A stretch of DNA of 64,000 nt from Pseudomonadota bacterium (GTDB lineage: Bacteria > Pseudomonadota > Alphaproteobacteria > Acetobacterales > Acetobacteraceae): NCBI GenBank assembly GCA_018240405.1, contig JAFEFW010000622.1, forward strand, positions 43,326-107,325, read 5' to 3'. A program made the position numbers and the translations under genes. The notes under the pieces are model-generated. The model was given only the letters and a program-made list of their open reading frames with translations. It was not told where the DNA came from and searched no databases. Below are positions 29,615 to 64,000 of this stretch, in pieces (position 1 is the stretch's first letter; each line of letters begins with the position of its first letter).

Positions 29615-30288
29615 TGGCTCTGCCTTTCAAACAGCCGCAGAGCTTCCGCGTAGATCTCGTTGTCCAACGTGGTCCTGGCATAGATCGCCCGCTTGACGTC
29701 TTCAGTTACATCGATCCTGGTCTTTCGCTCATCAGCCCGATTAAGCAACGGCAGCTTTGGTGGATTGCCAAAATGCTCGCCCAGGCGAATGTGACCGACA
29801 ACGCGCGCGAGCAGCCGACACGACTCTATCATCCGCTCTGATATCAGCAAAACGGCATAATCCCGCAATTCCACGCCCGCCAAATGGCGGGTCATGGCGT
29901 TGCCAATGCCGTCCTGTTCAGCGAACTGGACAACGTCCATGCGGCCGGAGACGATGTACTCATGATACCACGACTTCGAGCCGGAGTCGTTCATCTCATG
30001 CTGAAATTGGGAGATGACACGGTAAACCGGATGGCGAAGCGTGGCGATGAAGGCAGCTCCGGGGAATACGTCAACATACTTCTCAGCAAAAAAATGCCCG
30101 TGCAGGACGCGGAAATAACTCTGAATGAACGATGCATGCTGCCTGAATTCGTCCGACACCACCTGTGGAGTGTCGTAGCCTGCGTAGTCGTAAATGACGC
30201 GGCGATCGAAACAACGGTCAAGGATTGCCGCGAGGCTCGTTCCCGCAGTCTTGGGTATGTGTACAGAAACGATAAAGGGATTTGTCAT
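29602..30288 (-). CDS. Sulfotransferase family protein (PAPS-dependent)
   Basis: 228 aa. The 5'-phosphosulfate loop HIPKTAGTS (residues 10-18) and the 3'-phosphate region TLRHPVYRVISQF are visible, as in carbohydrate 2-O-type sulfotransferases (sulfotransfer_2 family). It would transfer sulfate from PAPS to a sugar hydroxyl. It sits between two glycosyltransferase genes and overlaps the next gene by 13 nt, so the product is probably a sulfated surface glycan. The ATG at 30288 follows a close AGGAA. Confidence 0.87.
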   Translation of the reverse strand: MTNPFIVSVHIPKTAGTSLAAILDRCFDRRVIYDYAGYDTPQVVSDEFRQHASFIQSYFRVLHGHFFAEKYVDVFPGAAFIATLRHPVYRVISQFQHEMNDSGSKSWYHEYIVSGRMDVVQFAEQDGIGNAMTRHLAGVELRDYAVLLISERMIESCRLLARVVGHIRLGEHFGNPPKLPLLNRADERKTRIDVTEDVKRAIYARTTLDNEIYAEALRLFERQSQCLL

Positions 30289-30375
30289 TTCCTGTTGCCT
30301 TGATCGGAAGTGGCCTCAAAGGCGTCCGCGTTGCGGTGTCATTACGTTCATGCGTCTAGCAGCGGAGTGATGAGC

Positions 30376-33525: not shown

Positions 33526-33751
33526 GCGTAGGTGATACACGCTATGATTGTGAATTTCAACTGCTAATGCGTGTGCCGCCGGTATCGCAGATCGTACTCC
33601 TGTTCAGCAGATTGGCCGGGTCCGGCAGCACGCCGATCCGCCTGTGGACACGGACAAACACCGTCGCAAAGATGAATTGGGACCGCGACGGCGCCCCGGC
33701 CGGGCGTCCTACGGGACGCGGCAGGTGCGCTACTGAAACAGGTGTCGAGCC

Positions 33752-44685: not shown

Positions 44686-45555
44686 TCAGCTTGTCAGCAC
44701 CGCTACCCGGAAGCCGCCGTAGTCATCCCGTGCGTCATCCGGATCGACCGAAAAGCCAAAGCCGAAGGGGTCGCCTTCGAGATGTTGCCGGATGTTCCAG
44801 TCGGTGTAGGTCTTGGATCCTGCCCAACCCGACGACATTGACAGCCAGGTGTGGGTCACCAGGCCCAGCGAGGACAACCTGCCGCACACCAGCCCGGACC
44901 CGTACACACCTATGGCATAGGCTGGCGCACCATGGCCGATCGTGGTCAGTCCTGCGGCGACACCCTGAAAATACGGAATGATGCCGCCATTCAGTTCGGC
45001 GACGGATGCATCGAAATCGACGGCGAAATAAATTGGCGTGCCTGGAGGCTGCCCGATGCCCATGGCCTGGTTGTGTGCCGATGTGGCGTCATCGACGCCC
45101 TGTGCACGCGTGAAAAACGAAGCGTGATTACCCGCGGACTCCCAGACGGCAACAATTTCAATCCCGGCGCCAGACAGGAGTTTCGCCTCCCCCGGCGAAA
45201 TGTTCTTGGCGTGGTTATGCGAGTAGTAGCGGGCTACAAACTCGACATTCGCAGCGGAGATCTTGTTGATCAGGCCGGAGCAGTCCCGATTGCTATCAAA
45301 GCCGCGCTTCAGGTTCGCGCCGAGCGTGAGCGCCGGAGAGATTGCGTGCGCAAACGATGCGCCCGCCGTTGGCGCCGCCGGGGATGCTGCCGTGTCGACG
45401 CACGGCGGGAAAACCGCCGTCACGGTAAACGTGCCGTCGTCGTCCTCCCGCTTCGACACGCTGGTCGGATTGCTGAATATGTACTGTTGCATCACGCGGT
45501 CGACTTGCGCCGGCGGAATGCCGGATAACTGATGCGTTCCACAAGGCTGTGCCAT
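44686..45555 (-). CDS. DUF1906 (Rv2525c-like) glycoside-hydrolase-like protein
   Basis: 289 aa. The C-terminal ~200 residues match the DUF1906 TIM-barrel-like family: GFDSNRDCSGLIN (from residue 85), FVARYYS, IYFAVDFDAS and a late IRQHLEG. Relatives are linked to cell-wall processes. No signal peptide is visible. The first ~75 residues are a separate, unassigned segment. It lies just after three small lipoprotein genes on the same strand, suggesting a joint envelope role. Confidence 0.8.
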   Translation of the reverse strand: MAQPCGTHQLSGIPPAQVDRVMQQYIFSNPTSVSKREDDDGTFTVTAVFPPCVDTAASPAAPTAGASFAHAISPALTLGANLKRGFDSNRDCSGLINKISAANVEFVARYYSHNHAKNISPGEAKLLSGAGIEIVAVWESAGNHASFFTRAQGVDDATSAHNQAMGIGQPPGTPIYFAVDFDASVAELNGGIIPYFQGVAAGLTTIGHGAPAYAIGVYGSGLVCGRLSSLGLVTHTWLSMSSGWAGSKTYTDWNIRQHLEGDPFGFGFSVDPDDARDDYGGFRVAVLTS

Positions 45556-50158: not shown

Positions 50159-50235
50159 CGGAGTGTAGCTCAGCCTGGTAGAGCACTGTGTTCGGGACGC
50201 AGGGGCCGGAGGTTCGAATCCTCTCACTCCGACCA
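50159..50235 (+). tRNA. tRNA-Pro (anticodon CGG)
   Basis: A 77-nt cloverleaf with encoded CCA. The acceptor stem CGGAGTG/CACTCCG is perfect. The D-arm is GCTCAGCCTGGTAGAGC, the anticodon arm is CTGTG-TTCGGGA-CGCAG with CGG at the anticodon, and the T-arm contains GGTTCGAATCC. It lies 49 nt after the ppsR-type gene. Confidence 0.97.
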
Positions 50236-50462: not shown

Positions 50463-51773
50463 TTACGGATACTCTTCCTTTTCAAAAATCTCCAGCTGCG
50501 AGGTCATCTCCATGCCCTTGGTCTCGGGACCCAGGTAGACGGCGATGACGTACACGATCAGCGATCCGACCGTCGCGTACAGCATTGGCATGGCGAAGCC
50601 CATCTGCTGATTGACCGCGAAATACGTCAGTAGCGGTGCGACAAACGCGCCCCACACTGCACCCTGGTGGTAGACGAAGCCGGCCGCCGTGGCTCTGACC
50701 TCGGTCGGGAAGCGCTCCGACAGCCAGCCCGGGTTGAGCGCGTCCTTGCCGCCGACGAAGCAGATCATCAGCATGAACAGGATCAGGAACATCGTCGGGT
50801 CCGTCGTCATCAGGTAAAACGGCGCGATGAAGATGGAGATGAAGGTCGGGATCATCAGCGCCCAGCGGCGCCCGACCTTCTCCGACATGGCGCCCCAGAA
50901 CGAGCTGGCAAGGAAGGTGATGATGTTGCCCCAGAACACCGGTACCGACACCTGGGCCGGCGTCCAGTGCAGCTCCTTCTGCAGATAAGTGCCGAGCATG
51001 GCCCAGATCGAGTAGTAGACGCAGAAATTGGCGGCCATCCACAGGCAGCCGGTCAGCGTGTTGAACAGGTACTTCCGCTTGAAGATGGCGAACAGCGGCA
51101 GCGAAACCTGCTGCTGAGTGGCATTCTGGGCCGCCTTGTTCTCGGCCCAGACCTCCGGCTCTTTCACGTACATCCGGATCCACACGCAGGCCAGCGCCGG
51201 CAGCACGCCCAGGATCAGCATGCCGCGCCAACCCCAGCCCGGATGCCAGGCTTCCAGCGGCGAGTACAGCAGGCCATAGGCCAGCGCCGATAAGGCAAAG
51301 CCAAGGCCCCACGACCCCTGCAACACCCCGGACATGAACCCACGCGACCGCGCCGGCCAGGACTCCATGGCCAGCGCCGCGCCAGCCGGCCATTCCGCGC
51401 CCATTCCGATACCCAGCAGGGCCCGGACCACGAACAGGAACATGAAGCTGGGTGCAAGACCGGCGAGCAGGTTGCAGACGGAGTACCACAGGATCGAAAT
51501 CATCAGCGGCGCCCGGCGGCCCATCCGGTCAGCCAGCCACCCGGACGCGGTTGCGCCAAACAGCCGCATGATCAGTGTGATCGTGAAGACCGCGGTCACG
51601 TCGATCAGCGGAACACCGAATTCCTGCGCGATCGGCGCCATGATCAGCAGGAAAACGGTGAAGTCGAACGCATCCAGCGTCCAGCCCAGCCATGCGGCTA
51701 TATAGGCATACCATTGATCCTTGGTGGGTTCCTTCCACCAGGGTACAGATTTCCCTCCAGTCGTCGCTGACAT
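50463..51773 (-). CDS. MFS transporter (sugar-acid/organic-acid:H+ symporter type)
   Basis: 436 aa from ATG 51773, chosen because GGGGGG precedes it and MSATTGGKSVPWWKEP is a typical start; an in-frame start at 51896 is poor. Twelve hydrophobic segments are present with the MFS loop motif ASGWLADRMGRRAPL after TM2. The pattern LGWTLDAFDFTVFLLIMAPI recalls the SHS/NanT-like lactate-sialate group. It is an inner-membrane proton symporter; the substrate is not certain. A strong terminator follows. Confidence 0.92.
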   Translation of the reverse strand: MSATTGGKSVPWWKEPTKDQWYAYIAAWLGWTLDAFDFTVFLLIMAPIAQEFGVPLIDVTAVFTITLIMRLFGATASGWLADRMGRRAPLMISILWYSVCNLLAGLAPSFMFLFVVRALLGIGMGAEWPAGAALAMESWPARSRGFMSGVLQGSWGLGFALSALAYGLLYSPLEAWHPGWGWRGMLILGVLPALACVWIRMYVKEPEVWAENKAAQNATQQQVSLPLFAIFKRKYLFNTLTGCLWMAANFCVYYSIWAMLGTYLQKELHWTPAQVSVPVFWGNIITFLASSFWGAMSEKVGRRWALMIPTFISIFIAPFYLMTTDPTMFLILFMLMICFVGGKDALNPGWLSERFPTEVRATAAGFVYHQGAVWGAFVAPLLTYFAVNQQMGFAMPMLYATVGSLIVYVIAVYLGPETKGMEMTSQLEIFEKEEYP

Positions 51774-52107
51774 GTATTTTGCCCCCCTACTTTCGCTATC
51801 CTGCGTCGTGGTCAGAAGACCCGACCGACACGGCCACGGCTCTCCCCGCGTTAGGGGAGCCGCATCCCGATAAGGAACAATGCAACAGCATTGCAATCAC
51901 GTCTATACCCCCATCTGACGGCGGTGGCAGTCGTTGCGGGGAGCGCGACAGACTGGCTCCCGCCTGTATGCCGGACCGCACGCCGGCCCAGCCCCTGGCA
52001 TCGCCGCATGCCGCAAACGTTGCTGCGCCGTCGTCCAATCCTGCGGCGCGCAGGCCAGCCACACATATTTCCGCCGTGGCGCATGAACCGGCAGCCGCCG
52101 GCAACCG
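51774..52107. other. 334-nt gap between transporter and eCIS ATPase
   Basis: Promoter and leader region of the leftward transporter and the 3' side of the ATPase gene. Reading frames here have no family features, and no clear terminator hairpin with a T-tract is seen. Confidence 0.5.
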
Positions 52108-54504
52108 CTACGGCGGTCCGTCGACCTCCACATCAACCACGATCGATGGTTTCATCGGATGCTCATGACTGCTCCAGAACCGGTGCAGCAGGTCGAAGTC
52201 GTGGCTCTCCTGGATCCGGAACTGCGCCGTCATTCCAGGTGTAGAAACGACACCCAGGCGCGATAACGTCTCATGCGCGACGCCGAGAAGTTCAAGTTCC
52301 TCCTCGGCTCGGTGCGACCACGCCGAGACAATGAACCCGGCGCGAAATCCGGGGCCGCTGCGCCGTCCGGCAACGCGGAACAACGCCACCGACATGGCCG
52401 GCCGCCGCCCCGCCAGGTTCCGGTCGGTCGGCGAACCCTGCACCAGGTGAATTTCCTTGCGGAACAGTGCCCGCAGCGTCGGTTCCAGCGCGCTCTCCAG
52501 CAAATCGCCAACCGCGCGCAGCCTGTGGCCACGGTCGGGTCCAACTTCCCCGTCCGGATCGTGCACCCCCGGTCCGGCTGAACCGGGCGGACGACGGGAC
52601 AGCCGTCCAAGTTCCAGCAGTTCAACGGCAATCGCTTCCTCGACATGGTGCGCCGCCAGTTTCGCGCGTTCGGCCTCGGCCAGGAAGATCGCCCGCAGCG
52701 CCACATTGCGGATTTCACCACCGGACAGGCGGTGCTGTCGGGCAATCTTGGCCAGGTCCAACGCCTCATCCCGCATGATCGATGGCGGCAGGAACAACTC
52801 CCAGATGCGCCGCCGCTCATCGCGTTCCGGCAACGGGAATTCGATGCGGAATTGGAACCGGCGCAGGAACGCTTCATCGATCGCATGGCGCAGATTGGTG
52901 GCGAGGATGACCACGCCATCGTGCCGCTCCATCCGCTGCAGCAGATAGCCTACCACCATGTTGGCGAATTGCTCCGCGCCGGACGATGCCTTTTCCTGAC
53001 GGCTGGAGAACAGCACGTCCGCTTCATCGAAAAACAGCACAGCTGGCGCCCGCTCCGCCTCAGTCAATGCGTTATCGATATGCTTCTCCGTATCGCCGAT
53101 ATACTTGCTGATCAACTGTGACAGATCGACCGAATGCAGCCTCAGGCCCAGAGCGGTGGCCACCGCCTCGGCCGCCACCGTCTTTCCGGTTCCGGACCGG
53201 CCAGCGAACAGCACCAGCGGGCCGGTGTCGAGCCGGTAACGCCGAGCCAACTTTCTTTCGAGAGCAACACGGTCACGGTGGCGGGCAAAGTAGATCAACT
53301 GTTCCAGGGCGGACCGCGTTGTATCGCGCAATACCAGATCGTCCAGCGTGCTCTCGGTTTTGACCGCGTTGCTGTGCCGTACCGTGGCCGGCGCCAGCCT
53401 CCGTGCCATGGCATCCAGCGCCTGCGCATCCGTCACCCTGCAACCCGCAACCATCTCCGTCATCACGCTCGGTTGAAGACGATGGCGTGTGGCCAGCCCG
53501 TGCACCTCGTCCTCAGACAGACGCAACCCGGCCGCCGCTGCGGCGCAACGCCACGCCTCGGCCCGCTGCGCCCATGATGGCGCGGTACATTCTATATGCG
53601 GCACGGTCAGCGGAAGCGGCGCTGCGCTGGCGATCCAGGCGCGGCCGCCAAGCGTTGCCACCCAGCTCTGAATGGCGTCGCCCAGCGGCCGCCGTTCAGT
53701 CTCCTCGATATCGCTGCAGTCCAGCAGCGGCAGGCACCCGGCAGCCAGGCCCAACCGCCATGCCGCCTGGCATACCGAAACCGCCGATGAGGAACCGGGC
53801 ACCTTCACCAGCAGTAGGCGCTGACCTGGGGCGACAAGCCTGCAGCCTGCGCTTATCAAATCGCCGCGCCCATGCAGCACGAGACAGGCGGCGGCTTGCT
53901 CTGTCCCCGGTTCCGCCGCACCAGGGAGAAGTGTCTGGCGCAATGCGCCGGCGATCTGCGGTACAGCCACGCCAGTCAGCACCGCCGCGGTGTCATCGGA
54001 CATGGCAAACGACCGGCCGAGCGGCGCGGCACTGCCGCTGTCCGCGATCAATATGCCGCTTCGGCACAATAGGCCGCCCGGCGCCAGGCTGGCCTTCAGA
54101 CGCTGTCGCCGCTCCACCGTCCCGCCCGCCACACCCAGCAACAGGCGTTCGGTCGGGCGCCCCTGCCGCAGATCGTCCTGCAGCACCGCATAGAGCGACT
54201 GGTAGCGCGGCTCCAGGTGCGGCGCGATCATCACGACCAGTGCCTCGGCTTCACAAGCATCCAGCTTCAGTTCGGCACCGATCCGGTGCAGCGCATGCGG
54301 CTCGTCCGGTAGCAGCCGTTCCTCAAAGCTGCTGCCGGTGTTCAGCAGGTCATCCACCGTTGGCCGTATCATATTACGTACGCCGTCCCATCCGGCCCGG
54401 CCGTCGCCGGTCAGCTTCGCAGCCCGCCGCTCCTCGGCATCGCATACCGCAAGCAGACGCGCATCCAGCCGCCGCAATGCTTCCGTTAGAAACGGATCGA
54501 GCAT
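52108..54504 (-). CDS. eCIS AAA+ ATPase (Afp15/Pvc15-like) fused to a Pvc16/DUF4255-like domain
   Basis: 798 aa from ATG 54504, chosen for the GAGGGGAAGG site before it; a GTG at 54528 is in frame. The first ~370 residues are helical with a degenerate ATPase-like half. The active AAA+ module has Walker A AGRSGTGKT (about residue 436), Walker B VLFFDEADVLF (about 490), and a sensor/arginine region AIDEAFLRRFQFRIEFPLP. Residues ~660-798 resemble the DUF4255 family of tail-terminator proteins: LESALEPTLRALF, then FIVSAWSHRAEEELELLG, then HRFWSSHEHPMKPSIVVDV. In Afp/PVC these are separate genes (afp15, afp16). It is divergent from the structural operon and probably aids particle assembly. Confidence 0.88.
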   Translation of the reverse strand: MLDPFLTEALRRLDARLLAVCDAEERRAAKLTGDGRAGWDGVRNMIRPTVDDLLNTGSSFEERLLPDEPHALHRIGAELKLDACEAEALVVMIAPHLEPRYQSLYAVLQDDLRQGRPTERLLLGVAGGTVERRQRLKASLAPGGLLCRSGILIADSGSAAPLGRSFAMSDDTAAVLTGVAVPQIAGALRQTLLPGAAEPGTEQAAACLVLHGRGDLISAGCRLVAPGQRLLLVKVPGSSSAVSVCQAAWRLGLAAGCLPLLDCSDIEETERRPLGDAIQSWVATLGGRAWIASAAPLPLTVPHIECTAPSWAQRAEAWRCAAAAAGLRLSEDEVHGLATRHRLQPSVMTEMVAGCRVTDAQALDAMARRLAPATVRHSNAVKTESTLDDLVLRDTTRSALEQLIYFARHRDRVALERKLARRYRLDTGPLVLFAGRSGTGKTVAAEAVATALGLRLHSVDLSQLISKYIGDTEKHIDNALTEAERAPAVLFFDEADVLFSSRQEKASSGAEQFANMVVGYLLQRMERHDGVVILATNLRHAIDEAFLRRFQFRIEFPLPERDERRRIWELFLPPSIMRDEALDLAKIARQHRLSGGEIRNVALRAIFLAEAERAKLAAHHVEEAIAVELLELGRLSRRPPGSAGPGVHDPDGEVGPDRGHRLRAVGDLLESALEPTLRALFRKEIHLVQGSPTDRNLAGRRPAMSVALFRVAGRRSGPGFRAGFIVSAWSHRAEEELELLGVAHETLSRLGVVSTPGMTAQFRIQESHDFDLLHRFWSSHEHPMKPSIVVDVEVDGPP

Positions 54505-54797
54505 CCTTCCCCTCTGTCTTGCCACCACGGATCATATTTCCGGGTGAAATACAATCGATCTTGACTCAAGCGCGCGTCCTGAACGACGCTCCTGTTTAAG
54601 AGACCATAAAGGATGAATATTTGGTCACTCGCAACAACGATTAGTTAATCACAATTGTTGGCCGGTCGGAGGGAGTCGTTTTACGACGCTACCGTCGCAG
54701 CAGCGCGTCATGTACGCAACAATAAGTAATGGCACCTGCCTGACTGGGTTGTGCTGACCCGGCTCGGGCGTGATGCATGGGGAGGAATAAGCGGGCA
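54505..54797. promoter_or_regulatory. Divergent promoter region of the eCIS locus
   Basis: About 290 nt between the leftward ATPase and the rightward structural operon. The part at 54595-54660 is much richer in A+T than the surrounding genes, as expected for divergent promoters. No specific operator was recognised. Confidence 0.45.
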
Positions 54798-56819
54798 ATG
54801 GGTGGCAGTGTCTTACACGCGCTGATCTGGCGAGCGCGGTCAGGCATGCGTATCGATCGGCTTGGCATGATGGCCGGCCATGGATCTTCCGATCCGAACT
54901 ATCGCCCGCCCCGCCTGCCCTATATCTCCGTTGTCGGTCCCCTGAATCTCGAGCTCGAGCCTGACCGCGATCCGCCGCGCGCGATCTTCATCGTCATCCA
55001 GTCGCCAGGCTATCTCGCCGGCCGCGATGGCATGAACGCGCAGGTCGTTCCGGCACCAGGTACACTGCATTTGCGGCTCGACGGCGATACGCGCGCGGAC
55101 GTTGCGATTGATTTCGGGCCGCTCGCCGGCAGCCCGCTGACCGACGCCAATGCTCGCACCGCCGCGGCGCTCATCGAAACCGCCATTCGCGCCGCCGTCG
55201 GCAGTGGCGGCTTCAGCGTCGCCGGTACAGCCGTCACAGATCCGGCCCGTCTCGCAGAACTGCAACAAACCGCCGTGCGCTGGGACAGCGGACGCAAGCG
55301 CTTCGTTATTACTTCGGGACGCCGCGGCACCCGCGCCGATCCCTCTACCCTGCCCGACGCGACGCCCTTGCCAGTGTCACGTGTGGAGACTGAACCCGGC
55401 GCCAGCGACCTCGCCCCGGCGCTGGGCCTGCGCGACGGCGTGTTCGCTGCCGACGGCCGTCTCGCCCGGCAGAAGCTGGCCACGCCCACCGCCATTGCGG
55501 TCGATATCCGCCTCGACCTTTGGGCCGGTTCGCAGCAGGACCTCGCCGCGCTGTTGGAAGCCTGGGCACACACCACGCCGACGCGGACCGAGGTCGCCAC
55601 CTTGCCTGCCCTGCTGGCCGCCGACGTCGCCGCAAACGCCACGCAGATCACGCTACAGCGTGAGGGCGATCCGTTGACCCGCTGGAGCCTGCTGCAGCTT
55701 GAGCCGGACGGCGACTTCGCCGACCGGCTGTCGGCGGAGGCGCCCGTACTGGCCAATGGCGCTGCGCTGGACGCGCGGACACTGCGCCTGACTGGCCCTG
55801 CGACCGCGTCGCTGGGGTTCTTTCATGCCCCGCCGATCGCCCTGCCCGGTCTGCCGGAACATCCCGGCCCGACCGGCTACGCGCTCACTGTCGGCGTGCG
55901 CGCGGACGGCCCGCTTGCCGCCGGGCAGACCGCCCGGTTGGCACGCCTGACCGCAGGCGCTCGGACGGTGCTGCAGGTGACCATCACCATCAGCAACGGC
56001 GGCCCTAATCTGTTCGCCGATGTGACAGTCGCCGCGGATCAAGCCGATGGTACCGCCTTCACACCCGTAACGGTGCGCCTGCCGGCCGCGCAAGTGACCG
56101 CGGGGACTGATCTGCACGTGGTGCTGGATTCGACCCGCTTTGGTCTCGGTGTCTACGCCGACGGCGCGCCGCTGGTGCCGCTTGTCGCAGTACCGGAACT
56201 ACCCGCCGCCGTGTTGCCCGCCGGCGGCTATGACCTGCAGCTTGAACTCGGCAATCCGGCCGGCATCACCCTGCCGGTCCGCATCACCCATCTCCACCTG
56301 ATCGGTCGCCCGCTCGGCCCGCCTGATCCGCGCCTGCGCCGCAGCCTGGCGGCCGCGGTCAGCTGGCGCATCGGCGATCCGATCAACCTGGTGCGGACCG
56401 AGAACGGGTTCACCGCCGCCGGCGAACCATCGGGCGCGGTGGTCGTCGGCGTCGACGGCGATCGTCTGACGCTCGACCGACCTTTGGCCACCGCATGGCG
56501 GCGCGCCAGCACGCTGATCTACAGCCGCAGCCTGTTCTATCACCAGCGCCAGTGGCGGCGCGCCGACGACATCATGAACAACCTGTTCCGGCTGTCGGCG
56601 GAATATCGCGTGTCGACGTTCCTCGACGATCCGCTGCCGGCCGTCAGCGCGCCGCTGGTCGAGCGGCCGGAGGTCGAGGTGCTCGACCTGACACGGCTGC
56701 GGGCCGAGCGCGATGTCGCCGGCACGACGCGGCGCCCCGACTACCCGATGCCGCCAGCGGCGGCCAGCCCGAGTGTGCGGGCACGTATTCGCAGCACAGG
56801 CAGTTCCCGAGACTCATAG
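54798..56819 (+). CDS. Uncharacterised eCIS-operon protein with lectin-like segment
   Basis: 673 aa from ATG 54798, 11 nt after GGAGGA; ATG 54777 and ATG 54846 are options. It is the first gene of the injection-system operon, 9 nt before the sheath start. I do not recognise the family. Residues ~85-215 (GTLHLRLDGDTRADVAIDFG, then RFVITSGRRGT, then LAPALGLRDGVF) resemble a small alpha/beta unit also found in the sheath insertion. Residues ~325-460 look like a LamG/concanavalin-type beta-sandwich (LHVVLDSTRFGLGVYADGAP). The last ~150 residues include a helical, Tyr/Arg-rich part and a Pro-rich tail. A decorating, capping or target-binding role is possible but unproven. Confidence 0.8.
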   Translation: MGGSVLHALIWRARSGMRIDRLGMMAGHGSSDPNYRPPRLPYISVVGPLNLELEPDRDPPRAIFIVIQSPGYLAGRDGMNAQVVPAPGTLHLRLDGDTRADVAIDFGPLAGSPLTDANARTAAALIETAIRAAVGSGGFSVAGTAVTDPARLAELQQTAVRWDSGRKRFVITSGRRGTRADPSTLPDATPLPVSRVETEPGASDLAPALGLRDGVFAADGRLARQKLATPTAIAVDIRLDLWAGSQQDLAALLEAWAHTTPTRTEVATLPALLAADVAANATQITLQREGDPLTRWSLLQLEPDGDFADRLSAEAPVLANGAALDARTLRLTGPATASLGFFHAPPIALPGLPEHPGPTGYALTVGVRADGPLAAGQTARLARLTAGARTVLQVTITISNGGPNLFADVTVAADQADGTAFTPVTVRLPAAQVTAGTDLHVVLDSTRFGLGVYADGAPLVPLVAVPELPAAVLPAGGYDLQLELGNPAGITLPVRITHLHLIGRPLGPPDPRLRRSLAAAVSWRIGDPINLVRTENGFTAAGEPSGAVVVGVDGDRLTLDRPLATAWRRASTLIYSRSLFYHQRQWRRADDIMNNLFRLSAEYRVSTFLDDPLPAVSAPLVERPEVEVLDLTRLRAERDVAGTTRRPDYPMPPAAASPSVRARIRSTGSSRDS

Positions 56820-56828
56820 GAGGCGGTG

Positions 56829-59819
56829 GTGGCCGAGCGTCTGACTCCCGGCGTGTATGTGGAAGAAAAGAGCGGCGGCGTGCGGCCCATCCAGGGCGTC
56901 AGCACCTCCACGGTCGGCTTTATCGGGGTGGCGCCGCGCGGCATCCCGAACGTCGCGACCTTCATCAATGGCTTTGGTGCCTATCAGCGCCTGTTCGGCC
57001 CGCACCAGCGCGGCGAGGCCGGGTTCCTGGCGCAGGCCGTGGACTCCTTCTTCGAAGCGGGCGGACGGCGTGCCTTCGTCGTGCGCGTGGTGCCGCAGAA
57101 CGCGCTGCAAGGCGCGTCACTGCCGCTACGGGCGCGGGCCGCTGACGCGTGGGGCCAGCAGCGCGACGTGCTGCAGTTCAACGCAATCGGCGTAGGCGCC
57201 TGGGCCAACAGCATCCGCATTCATGTCGAAAGTTCGACGTCCTTCCAGGACGCCGCCTTCGCGGTGCGGGTGGAATCGGTCGAGAACGGCAAGTCGCAGA
57301 CGCTGGAGCGCTTCGACAACGTTCGCATGGATCCGGAAAGCGAGGATTACGTTGGGACGGTCATCAACGACACCTCGCGCTACATCACGGTGACGGACCT
57401 GCTGCAGGTGGCGTTCGACGCCGACCCGCAGACCGTCCCACCCTTGCCGGAACGGGCGGCGGAACTGCTGACGCGCCCGGCCTCCGGCCCGTACACCGTC
57501 CCCGAGGGCGCACGCATCGAATTCCGCTGGCGGGACAACGCGGCTGCCGGCAGCGACGATCATCTCGTGCCCGTCACCTTCGACAACGCCGCCGTGACCG
57601 CGGCCGGAGGCAGCTTCAGCAACGGACGCGCCACGCTGACCGCGCAGCAGCTTGGGCAGATCCTGACGGCCGCTCTCGGTTCCGGCTACCGCGTCACCGT
57701 GCCGCAGGCGCCGGCACAGGTCGCCTCCAACAACGGCCCGTTCAACACCACCGGCGGCACGCAGTCAGTGGTGCAGATCGACGGCGCGGCGACGAACCTC
57801 GTCTACACCGCAGCCAGCGCGGCAACGATGGATCTGGGCGCCGGACCGTTCGGCGGCTTGGCCGCCGGGCAGACGCTCACGCTGACGGTCGATGGTGGGA
57901 CGCCGCAATCGTATAATCTGCAGGCAGGCGACATTGGCGGCGGCGGCACGCCGGCCGAACTCGCCGTCGTGCTGAACCGCGAGTTCACTGGCATACAGGC
58001 CTTTGTTGCCGGCGCTAACCTGACCGTGCGCACCGACCGACGGGGTGCCAGTTCGACCCTTGCCATCACCGGATCGGCCGCCGCAGGACTGGGATCGCCG
58101 GGCGCACAGGCCGGCGCCGGCAACGTCGCCGACCCCGCCGCAGTGACGCCGCAGGAACTCGCCGCCGTCTTCAACACCACACTCGGCGCCGGCGCTGCCT
58201 TCGAGGCTCGGGTGCAGGACAGCCACGTTGTCTTCACCCAGATCAACACCGCGGCGAGCCACACCATCCAGTGGGTCTCTGATCCTGGTCCGGCGACGAT
58301 CGTTGCCGATACGACGTTGCACACCGGTCCGGCCATCCCGGCGGCCGGCGCTCAGGTGTCGATCCAGCCGGCGGTTGCCACGCGAGCCTATCGCGTGATC
58401 CGAACCCCGGCGCCGGGCGGAAGTTTCGCTGCCGGCGGGACTGCGCGCACGGTTGCTGTTGCGGTCACCAGCGGTGGCAATACCGAAACATTCCAGGTCG
58501 CGATCCCACAGAACGAGACGCGCACGCCGACGGCACTGGCGGAAGCCTTCACTGCCGTAATCGACGGTGCCCCGGCCAATACCTTCCACCTGGAAGCCGT
58601 CGCCGCGGGCGACACGGTTGTATTCTCGACCGGCCGCGTGGCCGGCGGCGTCACCATTGCCGCCACCGTCAACGGCGCGGCCATCTGGGCCGGGGAGCAG
58701 GGCAGAGCCGGCGCCGCCGGCACCGTCGTCGATTCGCAGTCCGCGGTTGAGATCAGCGCCAGCGAACCGTTCCGTCCCGGCGTCGCCCGCGTCCTGAACA
58801 CGCTGTTGGCGACGCCACGCGCCACCGGTCTCGACCAGGACAGCGCGCTCGATCCGAATTTGCGTCCCAACCTGACCGAGGACACGCCGCTGCGCCTGCT
58901 GGGCGGCACCGACGGCAGCGGCGAGGTTGGCGTGCCGGAATATACCGGGGATGTGACGCCGACCGGCCAACGCACCGGCATGCGCGCCTTCGATACCGCC
59001 GACATCAACATCCTGGTCATGCCCGGCCGCAATGACCCGGGCTTCGTCTCGGCCGCCTCGGCTTATTGTGACCTCAACGACGTATTTCTGATTCTCGACG
59101 GCGTCGGCAGCATCGACCGCGAATTCTCTGCCGGCACCGACGATGTGCGGCAATTTGTCGAGTCCCTGCCCGCGCGGTCCAACAACGCGGCCATGTATTA
59201 CCCTTGGGTGCGCGTGCCCGACCCGGTTGGCGTGGGCCGGAATCCGACGCGATTTGTTCCGCCGTCCGGGCACATGGCCGGCATCTTTGCCCGCACCGAC
59301 AACACCCGCGGCGTATGGAAGGCGCCGGCAGGGATCGAATCGACCGTCAGCGGCGCCATTGCCCTGCAGCACGACCTGCTGGACGCCGACCAGGATTTGC
59401 TGAACCCGATTGGACTGAACTGCATCCGCCAGTTCCCCGGAACGGGCATCATCTCCTGGGGCAGTCGCACCCTCGCCGCCGATCCGCAGTGGCGCTACGT
59501 GCCGGTGCGCCGCACGGCGCTGTTCCTCAAACAGTCGGTCAAACGCGGGTTGAAATGGGCGGTATTTGAGCCGAACGATGCAACCCTGTGGGAGCAGATC
59601 CGCACGAATATCGACGCCTTCATGCGCGGGCTGTTCCGCCAGGGCGCGTTCCAGGGCGCGACGCCGGATGAGGCTTTTGCCGTGCAGTGCGACCGCGAGA
59701 CCAATCCGCAGGAACTGGTTGACCAGGGCATCGTTACGGCCCGCCTGGCGTTCGCGCCACTGAAGCCGGCAGAATTCGTCGTTATTGAAATCAGCCAGAA
59801 GACGCTGCTGACGGCGTAA
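56829..59819 (+). CDS. Contractile injection system sheath protein, oversized
   Basis: 996 aa. The start is GTG 56829, five nt after a perfect AGGAGG (56818-56823); GTG 56826 is just before it. The N-terminal VAERLTPGVYVEEKSGGVRP and a C-terminal block (about residues 790-996, with WGSRTLAADPQWRYVPVRR and FMRGLFRQGAFQG) are classic phage-tail-sheath regions. A large insertion lies between about residues 220 and 660. It contains repeated small units (LTLTVDGGTPQSYNL then LTVRTDRRGASSTLAITGSA; VAVAVTSGGNTETFQVAIP), probably displayed on the outside of the sheath. Afp sheaths are about 350-450 aa, so this one is more than double. Confidence 0.93.
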   Translation: MAERLTPGVYVEEKSGGVRPIQGVSTSTVGFIGVAPRGIPNVATFINGFGAYQRLFGPHQRGEAGFLAQAVDSFFEAGGRRAFVVRVVPQNALQGASLPLRARAADAWGQQRDVLQFNAIGVGAWANSIRIHVESSTSFQDAAFAVRVESVENGKSQTLERFDNVRMDPESEDYVGTVINDTSRYITVTDLLQVAFDADPQTVPPLPERAAELLTRPASGPYTVPEGARIEFRWRDNAAAGSDDHLVPVTFDNAAVTAAGGSFSNGRATLTAQQLGQILTAALGSGYRVTVPQAPAQVASNNGPFNTTGGTQSVVQIDGAATNLVYTAASAATMDLGAGPFGGLAAGQTLTLTVDGGTPQSYNLQAGDIGGGGTPAELAVVLNREFTGIQAFVAGANLTVRTDRRGASSTLAITGSAAAGLGSPGAQAGAGNVADPAAVTPQELAAVFNTTLGAGAAFEARVQDSHVVFTQINTAASHTIQWVSDPGPATIVADTTLHTGPAIPAAGAQVSIQPAVATRAYRVIRTPAPGGSFAAGGTARTVAVAVTSGGNTETFQVAIPQNETRTPTALAEAFTAVIDGAPANTFHLEAVAAGDTVVFSTGRVAGGVTIAATVNGAAIWAGEQGRAGAAGTVVDSQSAVEISASEPFRPGVARVLNTLLATPRATGLDQDSALDPNLRPNLTEDTPLRLLGGTDGSGEVGVPEYTGDVTPTGQRTGMRAFDTADINILVMPGRNDPGFVSAASAYCDLNDVFLILDGVGSIDREFSAGTDDVRQFVESLPARSNNAAMYYPWVRVPDPVGVGRNPTRFVPPSGHMAGIFARTDNTRGVWKAPAGIESTVSGAIALQHDLLDADQDLLNPIGLNCIRQFPGTGIISWGSRTLAADPQWRYVPVRRTALFLKQSVKRGLKWAVFEPNDATLWEQIRTNIDAFMRGLFRQGAFQGATPDEAFAVQCDRETNPQELVDQGIVTARLAFAPLKPAEFVVIEISQKTLLTA

Positions 59820-59825
59820 CGTGCC

Positions 59826-60482
59826 ATGGTGGACCAAGCCCGTCCCCGCGACCCGCTGCGGACCTACCAGTTCCGGCTGCAACTAGAATCACCGGGTCCG
59901 TTGCTGGGCGAACCGTCGCGCTCCGCCACGACCGATCAGGTGGTGGGCGCCGCTGCGGCGCCGGCGGTCTATGTCGCCGGCGTATCGAAGATATCCGGTC
60001 TCGGTGTGACAATTCAACCGAACGAGACCTGGGAGGGCGGCAACAACCTGCACCGCTACGCCAACCCGGATCGGGCGGCGTGGGATTCGCTGACACTGGA
60101 ACAGGGCCTGGCGCTGGACGACACGCTGGAACGCTGGGCCCGCGCCGCGCTGGACTTCGTGATGACCGGCAAGGCACCCACTGAGGCGGTGAAGCGGCGG
60201 CTGTATATCGATGTCTGGGACCCCACCCTGCACGGCCCGCCACAGCCCGGTGCCGGAGTGGGCGGGTCCAGCAGCACGCAGCAGGTCCGGCTGCGCCGCT
60301 ATGTCGTGCAGAACGCCTGGGTGAGCAAGTTCCAGGCGATGCCGCGATTAGATTCGATGTCGAACGAAGTTGGTCTGCTCAGCATCGAGGTCACTCACGA
60401 GGGCTGGTTCATCGACACCACCGCCGCGCCGACGCCGGACGCCGGGGCGACAGCGGGATCGGCATCGGCCCTGATCGCATAG
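59826..60482 (+). CDS. eCIS tube-type protein (T4 gp19-like)
   Basis: 218 aa with the gp19/Afp1-Afp5-type pattern: an N-terminal YQFRLQLE, a middle VSKISGLGVTIQPNETWEGG, RYANPDRAAWDSLTLEQGL, and a C-terminal LSIEVTHEGWF. It is longer than the following tube protein, with extra loops near residues 25-50 and 140-155, so it probably forms the tube start or baseplate end rather than the main tube. It is 6 nt after the sheath stop. The C-terminus is Ala/Thr-rich. Confidence 0.9.
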   Translation: MVDQARPRDPLRTYQFRLQLESPGPLLGEPSRSATTDQVVGAAAAPAVYVAGVSKISGLGVTIQPNETWEGGNNLHRYANPDRAAWDSLTLEQGLALDDTLERWARAALDFVMTGKAPTEAVKRRLYIDVWDPTLHGPPQPGAGVGGSSSTQQVRLRRYVVQNAWVSKFQAMPRLDSMSNEVGLLSIEVTHEGWFIDTTAAPTPDAGATAGSASALIA

Positions 60483-60496
60483 AGGGAAGTGAAGCA

Positions 60497-60988
60497 ATGG
60501 CGAAGGCAGCACGATTCACCGAAACGACACGGCGGGATCCGTTCCGAAACTTTAACTTCATCATCGAGTTTGATGGCGTTGAAGTGGCTGCATGCCGCAA
60601 GATGTCGGCCATCGACGCTACGGTTAATGTGGTTAAATTCCGTCCAGGCAACAATTTGCATAGCAATGATGAGCACTCCCCGGGACGCGTCGAATACCCG
60701 GCGGTCACATTCGAAGGCGGCAAGACCAACGACAAGTCGTTCCAGGACTGGGCGAACAAGCTGATCACCCACGAATTCCGCACCGATCGCACGGCGGAAC
60801 CGGATTTCCGCAAGACCATCGACATCAAGGTGCTGGACATCAACGGCGCCGAAGCGCTGCACTACAAGCTGTTCCGGGCCTTCGTGTCAAAATACACAGC
60901 GATGTCCGATCTCGCCGGCGAGGGCAACGACGTCATCATCGAGACGCTGGAAGTCACGCACGAAGGCTTCGAGCGCATTGAGGCATAA
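60497..60988 (+). CDS. eCIS inner tube protein (T4 gp19/Afp1-like)
   Basis: 163 aa, the normal size of a tube protomer. The pattern FRNFNFIIEFDGVEVAACRK, HSPGRVEYPAVTFEGGKTND and IETLEVTHEGFERIEA is typical. It stacks as hexameric rings inside the sheath to form the injection channel. ATG 60497 follows GAGGGAAG at 60482-60489. It is closely spaced with both neighbours in the operon. Confidence 0.93.
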   Translation: MAKAARFTETTRRDPFRNFNFIIEFDGVEVAACRKMSAIDATVNVVKFRPGNNLHSNDEHSPGRVEYPAVTFEGGKTNDKSFQDWANKLITHEFRTDRTAEPDFRKTIDIKVLDINGAEALHYKLFRAFVSKYTAMSDLAGEGNDVIIETLEVTHEGFERIEA

Positions 60989-61006
60989 GGCGTCCGGAGC
61001 GGCCCG

Positions 61007-61885
61007 ATGATCGAACCCGCCCGCGAAGTCGCGCTTGCCCGTGGCCTGATCGACGAGACCGGCGCCCGCCATCGCCGCGTGTTGCTGCGGCCGTTGAATG
61101 GCTGGCAGGAATGGTCGCTCGCCGCCGCGCCGGACCGGATCGGCGCCGCCGAGGTACATGCGCTGCTGGCCTCATGCATCGAGCGCCTGGGTGGCTATTC
61201 CGAAATCGATACATCTCATACCGCCGCACTGTCGCGGGGCGACCGGGCGCGGCTGGCGCTGGAGCTGCGCAGCCTGCTGTTCGAGGACCGGCTGCCACTG
61301 ACGCAACGCTGCCCGAACCCCGACTGCCGGGAACTCGCGGACCTCGACCTGTTCGTTTCGCAATTGCTGGGCGAGCCGGGGGCACCGGAGCCGGAGTGGT
61401 TTGACGTTGCCACCGAAGACGGACCCGCCCGCGTTCGCCCGCCGACCGGGCTGGATGAGGAAATCAGCATGGCGCTCCCGGCGCCGCCGGAGCAGCAGGC
61501 CGCCCTGCTGTGGAGCCGCATCACCGGGGCCGTCGGCGACCAGCGCGGACTGACCGCCGAAGACTGGCTGGCATTGCGTCCGGCAACGCGCCAGGCAATC
61601 GCGATGGCTCTGGCCGACGGCGAAGCCGCACCGGACCTGACCTTCCTGTCGCGCTGCCCCGCCTGCGCCGGCTGGCTGGAACTGGAAATCAATCCGTTTG
61701 ACCTGCTGACCCGCGAATTGCGCCGCGGCGCCGACCGCCTGCTCGCCGAGGTGCACTGCATCGCCTTCCATTATAGCTGGTCGGAAGACACCATCCTGGC
61801 GCTGCCACGCAGCCGTCGCTGGCGCTACCTCGAACTCCTGCGCGACCAGATCGAAGGCCGCCCGCTCAATGAGGGGTGGGGCTGA
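61007..61885 (+). CDS. T4-type baseplate protein with C-terminal DUF6760-like extension
   Basis: 292 aa. The middle resembles the T4 baseplate family seen in eCIS loci, with two Cys pairs (Cys102/Cys107 in RCPNPDC and Cys217/Cys220 in RCPACAG) that could bind a metal. The end, AEVHCIAFHYSWSEDTILAL followed by an RSRRWRYLELL-type helix (about 247-285), looks like the small DUF6760-type proteins that are usually encoded separately next to this gene. I infer a fusion. It lies in the baseplate/assembly part of the operon, 2 nt before the next start. Confidence 0.78.
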   Translation: MIEPAREVALARGLIDETGARHRRVLLRPLNGWQEWSLAAAPDRIGAAEVHALLASCIERLGGYSEIDTSHTAALSRGDRARLALELRSLLFEDRLPLTQRCPNPDCRELADLDLFVSQLLGEPGAPEPEWFDVATEDGPARVRPPTGLDEEISMALPAPPEQQAALLWSRITGAVGDQRGLTAEDWLALRPATRQAIAMALADGEAAPDLTFLSRCPACAGWLELEINPFDLLTRELRRGADRLLAEVHCIAFHYSWSEDTILALPRSRRWRYLELLRDQIEGRPLNEGWG

Positions 61886-61887
61886 TC

Positions 61888-62094
61888 ATGGCGCACGATA
61901 CGCATTTCGGCCTGAGCCGCCGCGAGCTGGAGGAGCAGTTGCGCTGGTTGCTGGTCAAGCCGCTGCCGAAGGAGCCTGAAAAGCTGGTGGAGGCGATCGG
62001 CCACATCGTCACCACGCTGATCAGCAAGAACAATGAAGCGATCGCACGTTGCATTGCCGACCGCGAGCGCACCGATATGCCGGGACATTCCTGA
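61888..62094 (+). CDS. Small eCIS-operon protein
   Basis: 68 aa from ATG 61888 (an in-frame GTG at 61876 would overlap the previous gene). It is helical and charged: SRRELEEQLRWLLVKPLPKE, then VEAIGHIVTTLISKNNEAI. No known motif. Its place between the baseplate-type gene and the Afp7-type gene, with 2-nt and 1-nt gaps, makes it very likely translated. It could be a baseplate assembly factor. Confidence 0.7.
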   Translation: MAHDTHFGLSRRELEEQLRWLLVKPLPKEPEKLVEAIGHIVTTLISKNNEAIARCIADRERTDMPGHS

Positions 62095-62095
62095 T

Positions 62096-62887
62096 ATGGT
62101 CGTTTCACTTGAGCCCGCGCAGATCGCCTTCAACCTGAAGCTGGAGCGTGGCAAGCTGGTGCGGTTCGCTTCGCCGCAATCCGGCAAGCCGGCGCCGGGG
62201 ACCACACCGAACGAGACCTTCGAGACACTGACATTTCAATACAATCCGTCAACTATCACCCGGACCCGCACGGGGCGTTGGGAACCACGAAAGCAGCGCA
62301 AAGGCTCCGTCGGATCACCGGCCGACATTCGAGGCCGCTCCACCGGCGGGACTGCGTCACTGCTGGCAGAGTCGGAGACGATCGGCTTCAAGCTGATTTT
62401 CGACGCCACCGAGGCCATCCTTGCCAACCGCTCCGGTGACGGACGTACCGTTTCCGAAACCGGTATCCTGCCGGAACTTGCCTTCCTCGACCTGATTTCC
62501 CTCGGCCGGGAAGAGCAGGACGCGCGTAACAGCAAGAGCGCCAGCAAGACGAAGAAGGCAGAGACCGTCCAGCCGATCAAGGCGGACACGCTGCTGCTGG
62601 TCCTGGGCATCCAGCGGATCATTCCGGTCGTGCTGACGTCGCTGACGATTACAGAGCAGAAGTTCAACCCGTCGCTGATGCCGATCCGGGCTGAGGCCGA
62701 TGTCCGGTTCAATGTGCTGGAGCCGGTCGAAAGCGCCTACAACACCTGGATCAAGGCCGCCTTTGACCAGTTGTTCAAGCAGCGGCAGACGATGTCGCGC
62801 CAGGCCAGTGCGACATCGCCGGACGACACCGCGAACACTGCAATCGCCAACGCCTTGCAGCCGCCCAGCGGCGCCACCTGGATCTGA
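62096..62887 (+). CDS. eCIS tube/baseplate adaptor protein (CIS_tube, Afp7 N-terminal type)
   Basis: 263 aa from ATG 62096, one base after the previous stop. The pattern FETLTFQYNPSTITRTRTGR followed by a beta-rich body (IGFKLIFDATEAI, LPELAFLDLISLGRE, LLLVLGIQRIIPVVLTSLTI) fits the contractile injection system tube family that initiates the tube on the baseplate. In Afp7/Pvc7 a LysM domain is at the C-terminus of the same chain; here it is a separate downstream gene. The C-terminal 30 residues are Ser/Thr/Gln-rich. Confidence 0.87.
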   Translation: MVVSLEPAQIAFNLKLERGKLVRFASPQSGKPAPGTTPNETFETLTFQYNPSTITRTRTGRWEPRKQRKGSVGSPADIRGRSTGGTASLLAESETIGFKLIFDATEAILANRSGDGRTVSETGILPELAFLDLISLGREEQDARNSKSASKTKKAETVQPIKADTLLLVLGIQRIIPVVLTSLTITEQKFNPSLMPIRAEADVRFNVLEPVESAYNTWIKAAFDQLFKQRQTMSRQASATSPDDTANTAIANALQPPSGATWI

Positions 62888-62897
62888 CGGAGGTCGC

Positions 62898-63179
62898 ATG
62901 GCGGACCGCTCGTCCCGTTTCTACAATGCACCGGCCTACTCGGTCCCGGCTGCCGACCGGCCCGGCAGTGCCGTCGTGCTGTACCAGCCGCGCCTGGACC
63001 CGCCGCCGCCCGTCGCCGGCACTTATCGCGTGCAGCCCGGCGACCGGCCCGACCTGATCGCGCATAATCTTTTCGGCGATCCGTTCGTCTATTGGCGCAT
63101 TGCCGACGCGAATCCCGACCTGACGCTGGACGAGCTTGCCACGCCTGGCCGCAGCATTGCGGTGCCGGAGAAACGCTGA
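62898..63179 (+). CDS. LysM-domain baseplate protein (Afp7 C-terminal/gp53-like)
   Basis: 93 aa. One LysM-like domain at about residues 41-90 (TYRVQPGDRPDLIAHNLFGD, VYWRIADANPDL). A Pro-rich 40-residue head precedes it. ATG 62898 has GGAGG five nt upstream. LysM proteins of this size sit at the baseplate wedge/hub interface in contractile systems. Its stop overlaps the hub gene start by one base (TGATG). Confidence 0.88.
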   Translation: MADRSSRFYNAPAYSVPAADRPGSAVVLYQPRLDPPPPVAGTYRVQPGDRPDLIAHNLFGDPFVYWRIADANPDLTLDELATPGRSIAVPEKR

Positions 63180-64000
63180 TGGCCGACCAGCGCCAGCCCG
63201 GGTTGCGCCTGTGGATCGACGGCAAACCCGTCGACCGCATCGGCGACTTCGTGCTGAGCGTCGAGGTGGAAGAGCGCTCCGATGAAGCCTCCAGCTTCCA
63301 GCTTACGGTGGCCCTGAACCCGGTAGGCACGGAAGATGGCGGCGACTGGGACGTACTGGAACACGGCGCCTTCGCCCAGGCCAACGCTGTGCCCGACCTC
63401 CGCCTGCTGTTGCGAATCACGATCGAGTTCAGCCTGCTGTCCGATGACGGCTCCGAACAACGTGCCGTGGTCATGGACGGCTACATCACCGGCATGGAGC
63501 CGGTGTTCACCGAAGAACGCCTGCCCGGTTCGCGGCTCATCGTTTCGGGGCTCGACGCCTCCTGCCTGATGCATTTCGAGACGGTGGCGCGCGAGTGGTA
63601 CGGTATGTCGGACGCCGATATCGCCCGCAGCATCTTCCAGAAATACGGCTTCGACGTCTCCGGCACCTCGATCGACGCCACGCCGACGACACGCGACCTC
63701 GACCGCTCGACGCTGGTGCAGCGGCACACCGACGCCGAGTTCCTGCGCTTCCTGGCAAAGCGCAACGGTTACGAAACTTTCCTCGACCCCGTGCAGCAGG
63801 AGGTGAAGCCTGGGCCGCATCCGGGCACCGCACTCGTCGGGCATTTTCGCTCACCACGGCCGGACCAGGACGTGCAGCCGGCGCTCGACCTGTTCCCACG
63901 CATCGCGCCGTCGTTGCTGGAATTTCGCGCGAAGTGGGAGAGCAACCTGCCGCCGCGCGTTCGGGGATGGCACATCAACGAAACCACGCGACGCATTGAA
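63179..64000 (+). CDS. VgrG/phage late-control D-like hub protein (Afp8-type), cut by window end
   Basis: 274 residues are present and the frame is still open at 64000. LRLWIDGKPVDRIGDFVLSV at the start, the segment VVMDGYITGMEPVFTE, and SFIFQKYGF-like SIFQKYGFDVSG with QRHTDAEFLRFLAKRNGYET are typical of gpD/gp27/VgrG hub domains that hold the spike at the centre of the baseplate. ATG 63179 shares a base with the LysM gene stop. The spike (gp5-like) part and any tip-associated toxin lie outside the window. Confidence 0.9.
   Translation, partial: MADQRQPGLRLWIDGKPVDRIGDFVLSVEVEERSDEASSFQLTVALNPVGTEDGGDWDVLEHGAFAQANAVPDLRLLLRITIEFSLLSDDGSEQRAVVMDGYITGMEPVFTEERLPGSRLIVSGLDASCLMHFETVAREWYGMSDADIARSIFQKYGFDVSGTSIDATPTTRDLDRSTLVQRHTDAEFLRFLAKRNGYETFLDPVQQEVKPGPHPGTALVGHFRSPRPDQDVQPALDLFPRIAPSLLEFRAKWESNLPPRVRGWHINETTRRIE

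What the first reader, a model, noticed from the sequence alone, without database searches (positions are those of the whole stretch)
52108..64000. One end of an extracellular contractile injection system (eCIS)
Seen: AAA+ ATPase, sheath, two gp19-type tube proteins, T4-type baseplate protein, CIS_tube protein, LysM protein and VgrG/gpD hub, in tight operon order. No capsid, terminase, integrase or T6SS membrane-complex gene (TssJ/L/M) is seen. Known: this set matches Afp/PVC-type particles released to inject toxins. Inferred: the rest (spike tip, gp25, gpJ, tape measure, fibre, effector) follows to the right.
Basis: partly seen in the sequence, partly recalled or inferred. Interest (0 to 1): 0.82.

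Follow-up and report, generated by a model that had tools for sequence, protein, structure and literature searches.

The report
Toxin-injector cluster with motor-cap fusion
The right end of this window is part of a gene cluster for a phage-tail-like protein injector, of a rare kind otherwise seen in myxobacteria, in which the ATP-driven motor thought to load the cargo is made as one protein with the lid of the needle, a hint at where the cargo goes in.

Summary
Window 52108-64000 carries an AAA+ ATPase, sheath, two gp19-type tube proteins, a CIS_tube protein and, less securely by profile, LysM-type and hub genes. The contig ends at base 64000. Contig C228 overlaps it and adds gp25 and baseplate J; synteny points to C607 for gpI, fibre and a separate gp5/gpV-type spike. 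No phage head, integrase or T6SS membrane family appeared among the proteins scanned. [quoted passage not shown]

(1) The ATPase ends in a Pvc16/DUF4255 cap domain (profile-profile P 96.7, E 4e-10; controls at most 1.1), the only Pvc16 match in this genome; 37 other ATPase ORFs compared stop at most 26 residues after the AAA lid. (2) An orphan 680-residue gene precedes the sheath; the searches run found it only beside such sheaths. (3) The sheath falls in a nine-member clade (100/100) whose placed members are Myxococcota, while 33 same-genus genomes lack the orphan gene.

Best reading: a new eCIS variant whose loading motor is part of the cap, so that cargo would be threaded in through the capped end. 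The fusion is shown; its function is inferred.

The parts
52108..54528 (-). AAA+ ATPase of the Pvc15/Afp15 kind (806 aa): winged-helix domain, clear AAA module at residues 439-566, C-terminal cap domain; divergent from the operon
   Evidence: PF00004 1.2e-27, PF22977 4.4e-12; full-length orthologs at 45-49% identity
52111..52527 (-). C-terminal 139 residues of the ATPase: Pvc16_N/DUF4255 (tube cap) domain fused in frame
   Evidence: PF14065 4.8e-4, below Pfam's cut-off; hhalign P 96.7, E 4.2e-10 over 128 columns, controls P at most 1.1; only PDB profile hit is a Pvc16 N-terminal domain protein, E 0.11
54777..56819 (+). Orphan 680-aa protein (U680), first gene of the operon; marker of the clade
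   Evidence: No Pfam, NCBIfam, PHROG or PDB hit for this protein; homologs seen only directly upstream of clade sheaths
56826..59819 (+). Contractile sheath, 997 aa, with a long insertion between the conserved N- and C-terminal parts
   Evidence: PF04984, PF17482; PDB sheaths down to 6.9e-87; the only PF04984 match in this genome
59826..60482 (+). gp19-type tube protein A (218 aa)
   Evidence: PF06841 6.4e-17; CIS5_fam 2.2e-6, below cut-off
60497..60988 (+). gp19-type tube protein B (163 aa)
   Evidence: PF06841 2.6e-30; TIGR02241 2.4e-29
61007..61885 (+). Putative baseplate protein with two Cys pairs (292 aa)
   Evidence: DUF6760 8.8e-5, below cut-off; Cys pairs; homologs at the same place
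61888..62094 (+). Small conserved ORF (68 aa)
   Evidence: 41-50% identity at the same place in the six clade loci whose contig covers it
62096..62887 (+). CIS_tube family protein (263 aa)
   Evidence: PF19266 4e-7 (with the frame read from 62033)
62898..63179 (+). Small gp53/LysM-type baseplate protein (93 aa)
   Evidence: Phage_gp53 0.016; homologs at the same place
63179..64000 (+). gpD-type hub, N-terminal 274 aa; cut by the contig end, continues on contig C228
   Evidence: NF033848 8.6e-4, below cut-off; phrog_52 0.0015; 86-base overlap at 98% with C228
50159..50235 (+). tRNA-Pro; beyond its 3' end none of 9 same-genus loci compared matches the window: possible insertion site of the cluster

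Best explanation
The block is the left end of an eCIS of a rare type whose other placed members are Myxococcota, probably acquired horizontally and lying beside a tRNA-Pro. It should build a contractile sheathed tube with baseplate, gp5-like spike and a fibre. What sets it apart is one protein that joins the AAA+ ATPase (Pvc15 role: loads cargo) to the domain that caps the tube (Pvc16/Afp16/Alg16A role). Most likely a hexameric ATPase ring sits on the hexameric cap, so that the motor is in line with the tube lumen and threads unfolded cargo in through the cap. Shown here: gene content, fusion, its conservation, the clade. Inferred: ring-on-ring docking, loading route, release from the cell, targets.
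For: eCIS gene set. Fusion: the C-terminal domain aligned from five clade ATPases matches a 46-sequence Pvc16 alignment at P 96.7, E 4.2e-10; six other slices of the same protein give P at most 0.2, ten column shuffles at most 1.1, our sequence alone 90.2; a profile of six clade domains has one hit up to E 10 among 177,635 PDB sequences, a 'Pvc16 N-terminal domain-containing protein', E 0.11. It is the only Pvc16_N match (E up to 0.01) in this genome. ATPase extension after the lid: 140-156 residues in 16 ORF views of seven clade genes, at most 26 in 37 other ORFs; G190 makes eight of nine clade members. The domain is as well kept (47-56% identity to ours) as the whole protein (47-48%). Clade support 100/100. 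Published, passages read: Pvc15 is needed for loading, PVCs assemble without it, it unfolds tagged cargo, and its predicted hexamer has a 13.7 A pore (PMC11495950; also PMC10097599); the AlgoCIS cap is a hexameric single-domain dome with an ~11 A channel (PMC8894135); ATPase and DUF4255 genes are often head-to-tail (PMC4122934).
Against: Pfam scores the fused domain below its cut-off in ours (21.8 against 27 bits) and in the three Corallococcus genes, and does not report it in the other clade genomes; the case rests on the profile-profile match. One clade member, G104, has no full-length ATPase match. Fusion does not prove loading; it may serve assembly or length control. No structure could be predicted. 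No cargo was assigned to this cluster. C228 to C607 is linked by synteny only. In Minicystis and G190 the ATPase lies at the far end of the cluster, in Corallococcus on another contig, so it is not tied to the operon.
Confidence: 0.5

Rival explanations
1. Ordinary eCIS in which the ATPase-cap fusion is a neutral joining of two neighbouring genes; cargo loads as in any other eCIS, whatever that route is.
For: ATPase and DUF4255 genes are often head-to-tail in such clusters (PMC4122934 passages), so a fusion is easy to make; the other structural parts are standard.
Against: Kept in eight of nine clade members whose sheaths differ widely; no stand-alone Pvc16_N match in our genome; the domain is as conserved as the rest of the protein.
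Confidence: 0.25
2. The fused protein works in assembly or turnover: the AAA+ ring uses the cap domain to reach the tube end and to remove the cap or recycle spent particles, as the T6SS ATPase does for its sheath.
For: A T6SS AAA+ ATPase recycles the apparatus after use (stated in PMC4122934); the fusion would put the motor at a fitting spot.
Against: The known eCIS ATPase is required for payload, not for particle formation (PMC11495950, PMC10097599 passages).
Confidence: 0.15
3. Prophage tail, tailocin or T6SS remnant instead of an eCIS.
For: Sheath, tube, gp25 and J also occur in phage tails; 1,659 of 50,697 phage records match the sheath. A protein 6.5 kb to the left (44686-45555) matches a phage endolysin family.
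Against: The ten phage rows listed are 26-34% identical over at most 40% of the sheath, against 52-62% in the best segment of the seven clade loci. AAA+ ATPase, Pvc16 domain and CIS_tube point to eCIS. Profile scans of 22 of the 42 genes called left of 52108 gave no capsid, portal, terminase, integrase or Tss membrane family (20 were not scanned).
Confidence: 0.04

Closest known systems
Myxobacterial loci: Corallococcus sp. CA053C, C. llansteffanensis, C. sicarius, Minicystis rosea (L016-L018, L022, L087-L090)
   Same: Same operon order with U680 before the sheath; ATPase-cap fusion; where the contigs reach: long J protein, fibre-type protein and separate spike
   Different: Sheath is longer here (997 aa; clade relatives with a complete frame 652-782); the ATPase is next to U680 here, but at the far end of the cluster in Minicystis and on another contig in Corallococcus
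Afp / PVC (eCIS lineage I)
   Same: Sheath, tube, AAA+ ATPase, cap domain, gp25, J, spike, fibre
   Different: Afp/PVC have three sheath proteins and separate pvc15 and pvc16; here one sheath gene and a fused ATPase-cap; no PAAR found
AlgoCIS (Algoriphagus, subtype Ib)
   Same: Cap is a single domain like the Pvc16 N-terminal domain (PMC8894135 passages)
   Different: Its cap Alg16A is a separate protein and has a cap adaptor, Alg16B
Large mixed-phylum eCIS group (Novosphingobium pSA1, Paraburkholderia, Hormoscilla and others; 41 sheath rows)
   Same: Closest sheath neighbours outside the clade
   Different: Where both were seen, Pvc16 is a separate ORF and the ATPase ends after the AAA lid; no U680 match

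Membership tests
eCIS (Geller et al. 2021, PMC8213781, passages) | At least ten eCIS core genes close together | tested here: inconclusive
   By my count eight core-type parts in the window and thirteen with C228 and C607, but on three contigs, one junction by overlap and one by synteny. In Minicystis the same set lies on one chromosome
eCIS (Geller et al. [quoted passage not shown]
   Afp16/Pvc16 domain, fused. The fibre-type protein is homologous to a Minicystis protein with DUF6519, a fibre domain in PMC12923769; ours itself gave only Beta_helix
eCIS / PLTS (Sarris et al. 2014, PMC4122934, passages) | Chaperone-type AAA+ ATPase with sheath and gp19 tube genes | tested here: met
eCIS / PLTS | Baseplate order LysM, VgrG, PAAR, gp25, J, P2-I | tested here: inconclusive
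   Order LysM-type, hub, gp25, J, second J, gpI in relatives and in our pieces apart from the second J, which falls in a gap; PAAR not found; Tail_P2_I is seen in the Minicystis gpI (1.4e-4) but our fragment lacks that part
eCIS | PAAR spike tip | tested here: not met
   No PAAR family among the cluster proteins scanned; PMC4122934 reports it missing from Proteobacteria, so not obligatory; the rest of the genome was not searched for it
eCIS | No phage head, terminase or integrase and no TssJLM beside it | tested here: met
   No such family in the proteins scanned: 22 of 42 called genes on the left and the cluster pieces on the right; parts of the right side were not seen
eCIS | Extracellular particle that injects cargo | not testable with these tools
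   Needs microscopy and loading assays
Afp/PVC (lineage Ia) | Three sheath genes; separate pvc15 and pvc16 | tested here: not met
   One PF04984 match in the whole genome; cap domain fused to the ATPase
T6SS (features recalled) | Two-part TssB/TssC sheath and TssJLM membrane complex | tested here: not met
   One-piece gpFI-type sheath; no TssJLM family in the proteins scanned

The most novel reading that the evidence does not exclude
A natural motor-on-cap injector: the loading ATPase is an integral cap subunit, so every particle carries its own in-line loading motor at the far end, and U680 is a new sheath-associated part (for example a cap adaptor in the Alg16B role, or a sheath collar) that goes with a single-domain cap. 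If so, eCIS cargo enters through the capped end, and other eCIS ATPases dock on the cap in the same way.
Probability: 0.35. Interest if true: 0.75.

Novelty: new variant of a known kind. Interest (0 to 1): 0.52.

Why it matters
[quoted passage not shown] A lasting fusion of two proteins is good evidence that they work together; this one names the cap as partner of the loading ATPase and so suggests the entry point for cargo. It gives a direct test in soil bacteria and a marker gene (U680) for a rare eCIS type that seems to have passed between myxobacteria and another lineage.

Tried and rejected
Prophage, tailocin or T6SS: rejected. U680 as a known family: no hit for our protein in Pfam, NCBIfam, PHROGs or by profile in the PDB; of seven homologs scanned at E up to 1, one hit DrmE_N (0.026) and one DUF3383 (0.18), taken as chance. 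None in viral contigs by pattern search or in plasmids. All-against-all profile comparison of 21 clade sets plus Pvc16 gave only tubeA/tubeB and cap/Pvc16 above P 20; it missed gpJ/gpJ2, which BLAST relates, so its negatives are weak. Repeat of the tRNA-Pro (words of 14 or more) in the window and five own-genome pieces: none. Host identity: no 16S match. The eight plasmid matches listed for the neighbouring PPSR protein are all Alphaproteobacteria by recalled taxonomy (44.6-46.5% identity), but they are 8 of 65 records, and the whole tally is led by Pseudoalteromonas, so the class is a guess. Promoter scan between ATPase and U680: none; one terminator-like match. No contig overlapping the right end of C228. 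A blank plasmid search with the cap domain. In one search the C. llansteffanensis ATPase was read from the wrong strand and that row was dropped; read it on the right strand. My gene caller merged or missed some genes (in G190: tubeA, gp25, gpI, ATPase); searches checked these by tblastn.
Full report
Observation. The window is bases 43326-107325 of contig C580 of a 681-contig genome, and the contig ends at window base 64000. Pfam gives AAA (1.2e-27), the two sheath domains (8.8e-13, 1.4e-12), two gp19 tube proteins (6.4e-17, 2.6e-30) and CIS_tube (4e-7); the sheath matches solved sheaths down to E 6.9e-87. The LysM, hub and 'T4-type baseplate' labels rest on weak profile hits and on homologs at the same places in other eCIS loci. 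The ATPase is transcribed away from the operon.

What follows to the right. Contig C228 (4,509 bases) overlaps the window end by 86 bases at 98% identity, with exact words of 71. It holds the rest of the hub, gp25 (PF04965 2.6e-17) and a J-type baseplate protein of at least 1,208 residues; the J match is weak here (phrog_219 1.4e-4) and firmer in the Minicystis homolog (PF04865 6.1e-9). The long N-terminal part is repetitive and looks like a beta-helix by eye; no profile says so. No contig overlapped the other end of C228. Homologs of the next Minicystis genes lie on contig C607 of the same genome: a gpI-type fragment, a 2,585-residue fibre-type protein (Beta_helix 9.4e-13), small proteins, a gp5/gpV-type spike (Phage_base_V 5.9e-23, Gp5_C 7.1e-6) and the start of a homolog of a 531-residue Corallococcus protein that might be a short tape measure. 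The Minicystis fibre homolog carries DUF6519 (6.1e-10), which PMC12923769 (passages) calls fibre-anchoring domain eBAP5; our own protein did not give that hit. So hub and spike are separate genes. No PAAR family was found among the cluster proteins scanned. One stretch of the own genome came back as N and was left alone, so the far right end is not described for this genome.

Relatives. A pattern scan of the species-genome collection with the sheath gave 56 loci. Seven of them (three Corallococcus, Minicystis rosea, two 'uncultured proteobacterium' MAGs, one unplaced MAG) share the order U680-sheath-tubeA-tubeB-Cys-pair protein-small ORF-CIS_tube-LysM type-hub-gp25-J as far as their stretches reach; three are cut inside it (L016 before J; L019 and L021 earlier), and in L021 the contig starts inside the sheath, so U680 could not be seen. 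U680 had no match in the other 49 loci, many of which are too short to cover the upstream side, none in plasmids, none confirmed in viral contigs, and none in 98 relatives of our genome, 33 of them of the same genus. In the phylum of Minicystis it was found in 4 of 377 genomes: Minicystis, the two MAGs and a new one, G190, whose contig shows the same cluster. In a 62-row sheath tree the nine clade rows form one side of one branch, support 100/100, in 100% of 200 bootstrap trees. The relatives that can be placed are Myxococcota, and congeners lack U680, so horizontal transfer is likely; its direction is not shown, and the class of our own genome is a guess. In same-genus genomes the PPSR gene and tRNA-Pro stay together, but in the nine loci compared (of 33 other genomes of the genus, chosen because both lay in one match) the 3 kb beyond the tRNA had no match to the window; two pairs of these loci share short stretches with each other. 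No other site was tested as a control. PMC8213781 (passages) reports an eCIS exchange between identical tRNA genes, so the site is a plausible entry point; no repeat was found.

The fusion. The ATPase's last 139 residues gave a Pvc16_N hit below Pfam's cut-off (4.8e-4). The domain aligned from five clade ATPases matches a 46-sequence Pvc16 alignment built from the fetched loci at P 96.7, E 4.2e-10 over 128 columns. Controls: six other 150-residue slices of the same protein give P at most 0.2 and ten column shuffles at most 1.1; our sequence alone gives 90.2, Minicystis alone 89.3. A profile of six clade domains against 177,635 PDB sequences has one hit up to E 10: 9gts_0A, 'Pvc16 N-terminal domain-containing protein', E 0.11, weak but the only one. 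Pvc16_N finds nothing else in our genome at E up to 0.01, while the seven clade genomes searched have further, separate Pvc16 genes, presumably of other eCIS clusters; Pfam reports the fused domain in ours and in the three Corallococcus only, below cut-off each time. Among ORFs matching the AAA core, 37 outside this family end at most 26 residues after the lid (one is broken and one cut by its stretch; a fragment of our own gene was left out), whereas 16 ORF views of seven clade genes have 140-156 more; G190 makes eight. The ninth, G104, has no full-length match. Outside the clade, Pvc16 is a separate ORF in the loci where both were seen.

Mechanism. Published work puts Pvc15 at cargo loading: PVCs assemble without it but lack payload, it unfolds signal-tagged protein, and its predicted hexamer has a 13.7 A pore (PMC11495950, passages; PMC10097599, passages). 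The AlgoCIS cap is a hexameric single-domain dome on the tube with an ~11 A channel (PMC8894135, passages). A protein that is both would place the motor over the lumen, with pores of like width. I therefore think that cargo is threaded, unfolded, through the capped end by a motor that is part of the cap. Shown: gene content, fusion, conservation. Inferred: ring on ring, route, release, target. The rivals are a neutral fusion, a role in assembly or recycling, and (very unlikely) a phage tail. U680 may be a sheath end, collar or cap adaptor; nothing here decides it.

Known or new. It meets most eCIS tests that could be run and fails the Afp/PVC ones (one sheath gene, fused cap). Nine searches of the paper library, which holds open-licence PMC papers only, gave no paper that I recognised as describing an ATPase-cap fusion; I read passages, not whole texts, of seven papers. 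PMC4122934 notes that ATPase and DUF4255 genes are often head to tail and lists a cluster in Corallococcus coralloides, and PMC11495950 names Minicystis among genera with an eCIS operon, so such loci may stand in published tables. I file it as a new variant of a known kind.

Noticed in passing
window 50159-50235: tRNA-Pro with the PPSR gene kept upstream in 9 same-genus loci, while the 3 kb downstream match the window in none of them: possible variable site of this genus.
   Followed up: partly
window 50463-51896: MFS transporter between tRNA-Pro and eCIS; 84-85% identical homologs lie on other contigs than the tRNA in two congeners.
   Followed up: partly
window 44686-45555: Rv2525c-like glycoside-hydrolase-like protein that also matches a phage endolysin family (phrog_13480, 1.3e-23), 6.5 kb left of the eCIS.
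   Followed up: no
window 26000-33600: Stretch of lower GC (57-63%) with methyltransferase, WsaF-type, sulfotransferase-like and double glycosyltransferase genes: probable surface-glycan island.
   Followed up: no
window 3-4889: Two neighbouring frames with much alike starts; the first is an AAA_16 regulator, the second was not scanned: probable tandem duplication.
   Followed up: no
L166 (G000 C573, 63830-67405): 1,191-residue frame with an eCIS_core domain (PF13699 8.5e-24) on another contig of the same genome: possible cargo or accessory protein of this eCIS.
   Followed up: partly
G099 (Minicystis rosea): 16 eCIS_core and 6 separate Pvc16_N matches in one genome, which suggests several eCIS clusters.
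   Followed up: no
window 56826-59819, residues about 285-640: Sheath insertion that makes this sheath 997 residues against 652-782 in clade relatives with a complete frame; perhaps an outer decoration of the sheath.
   Followed up: partly
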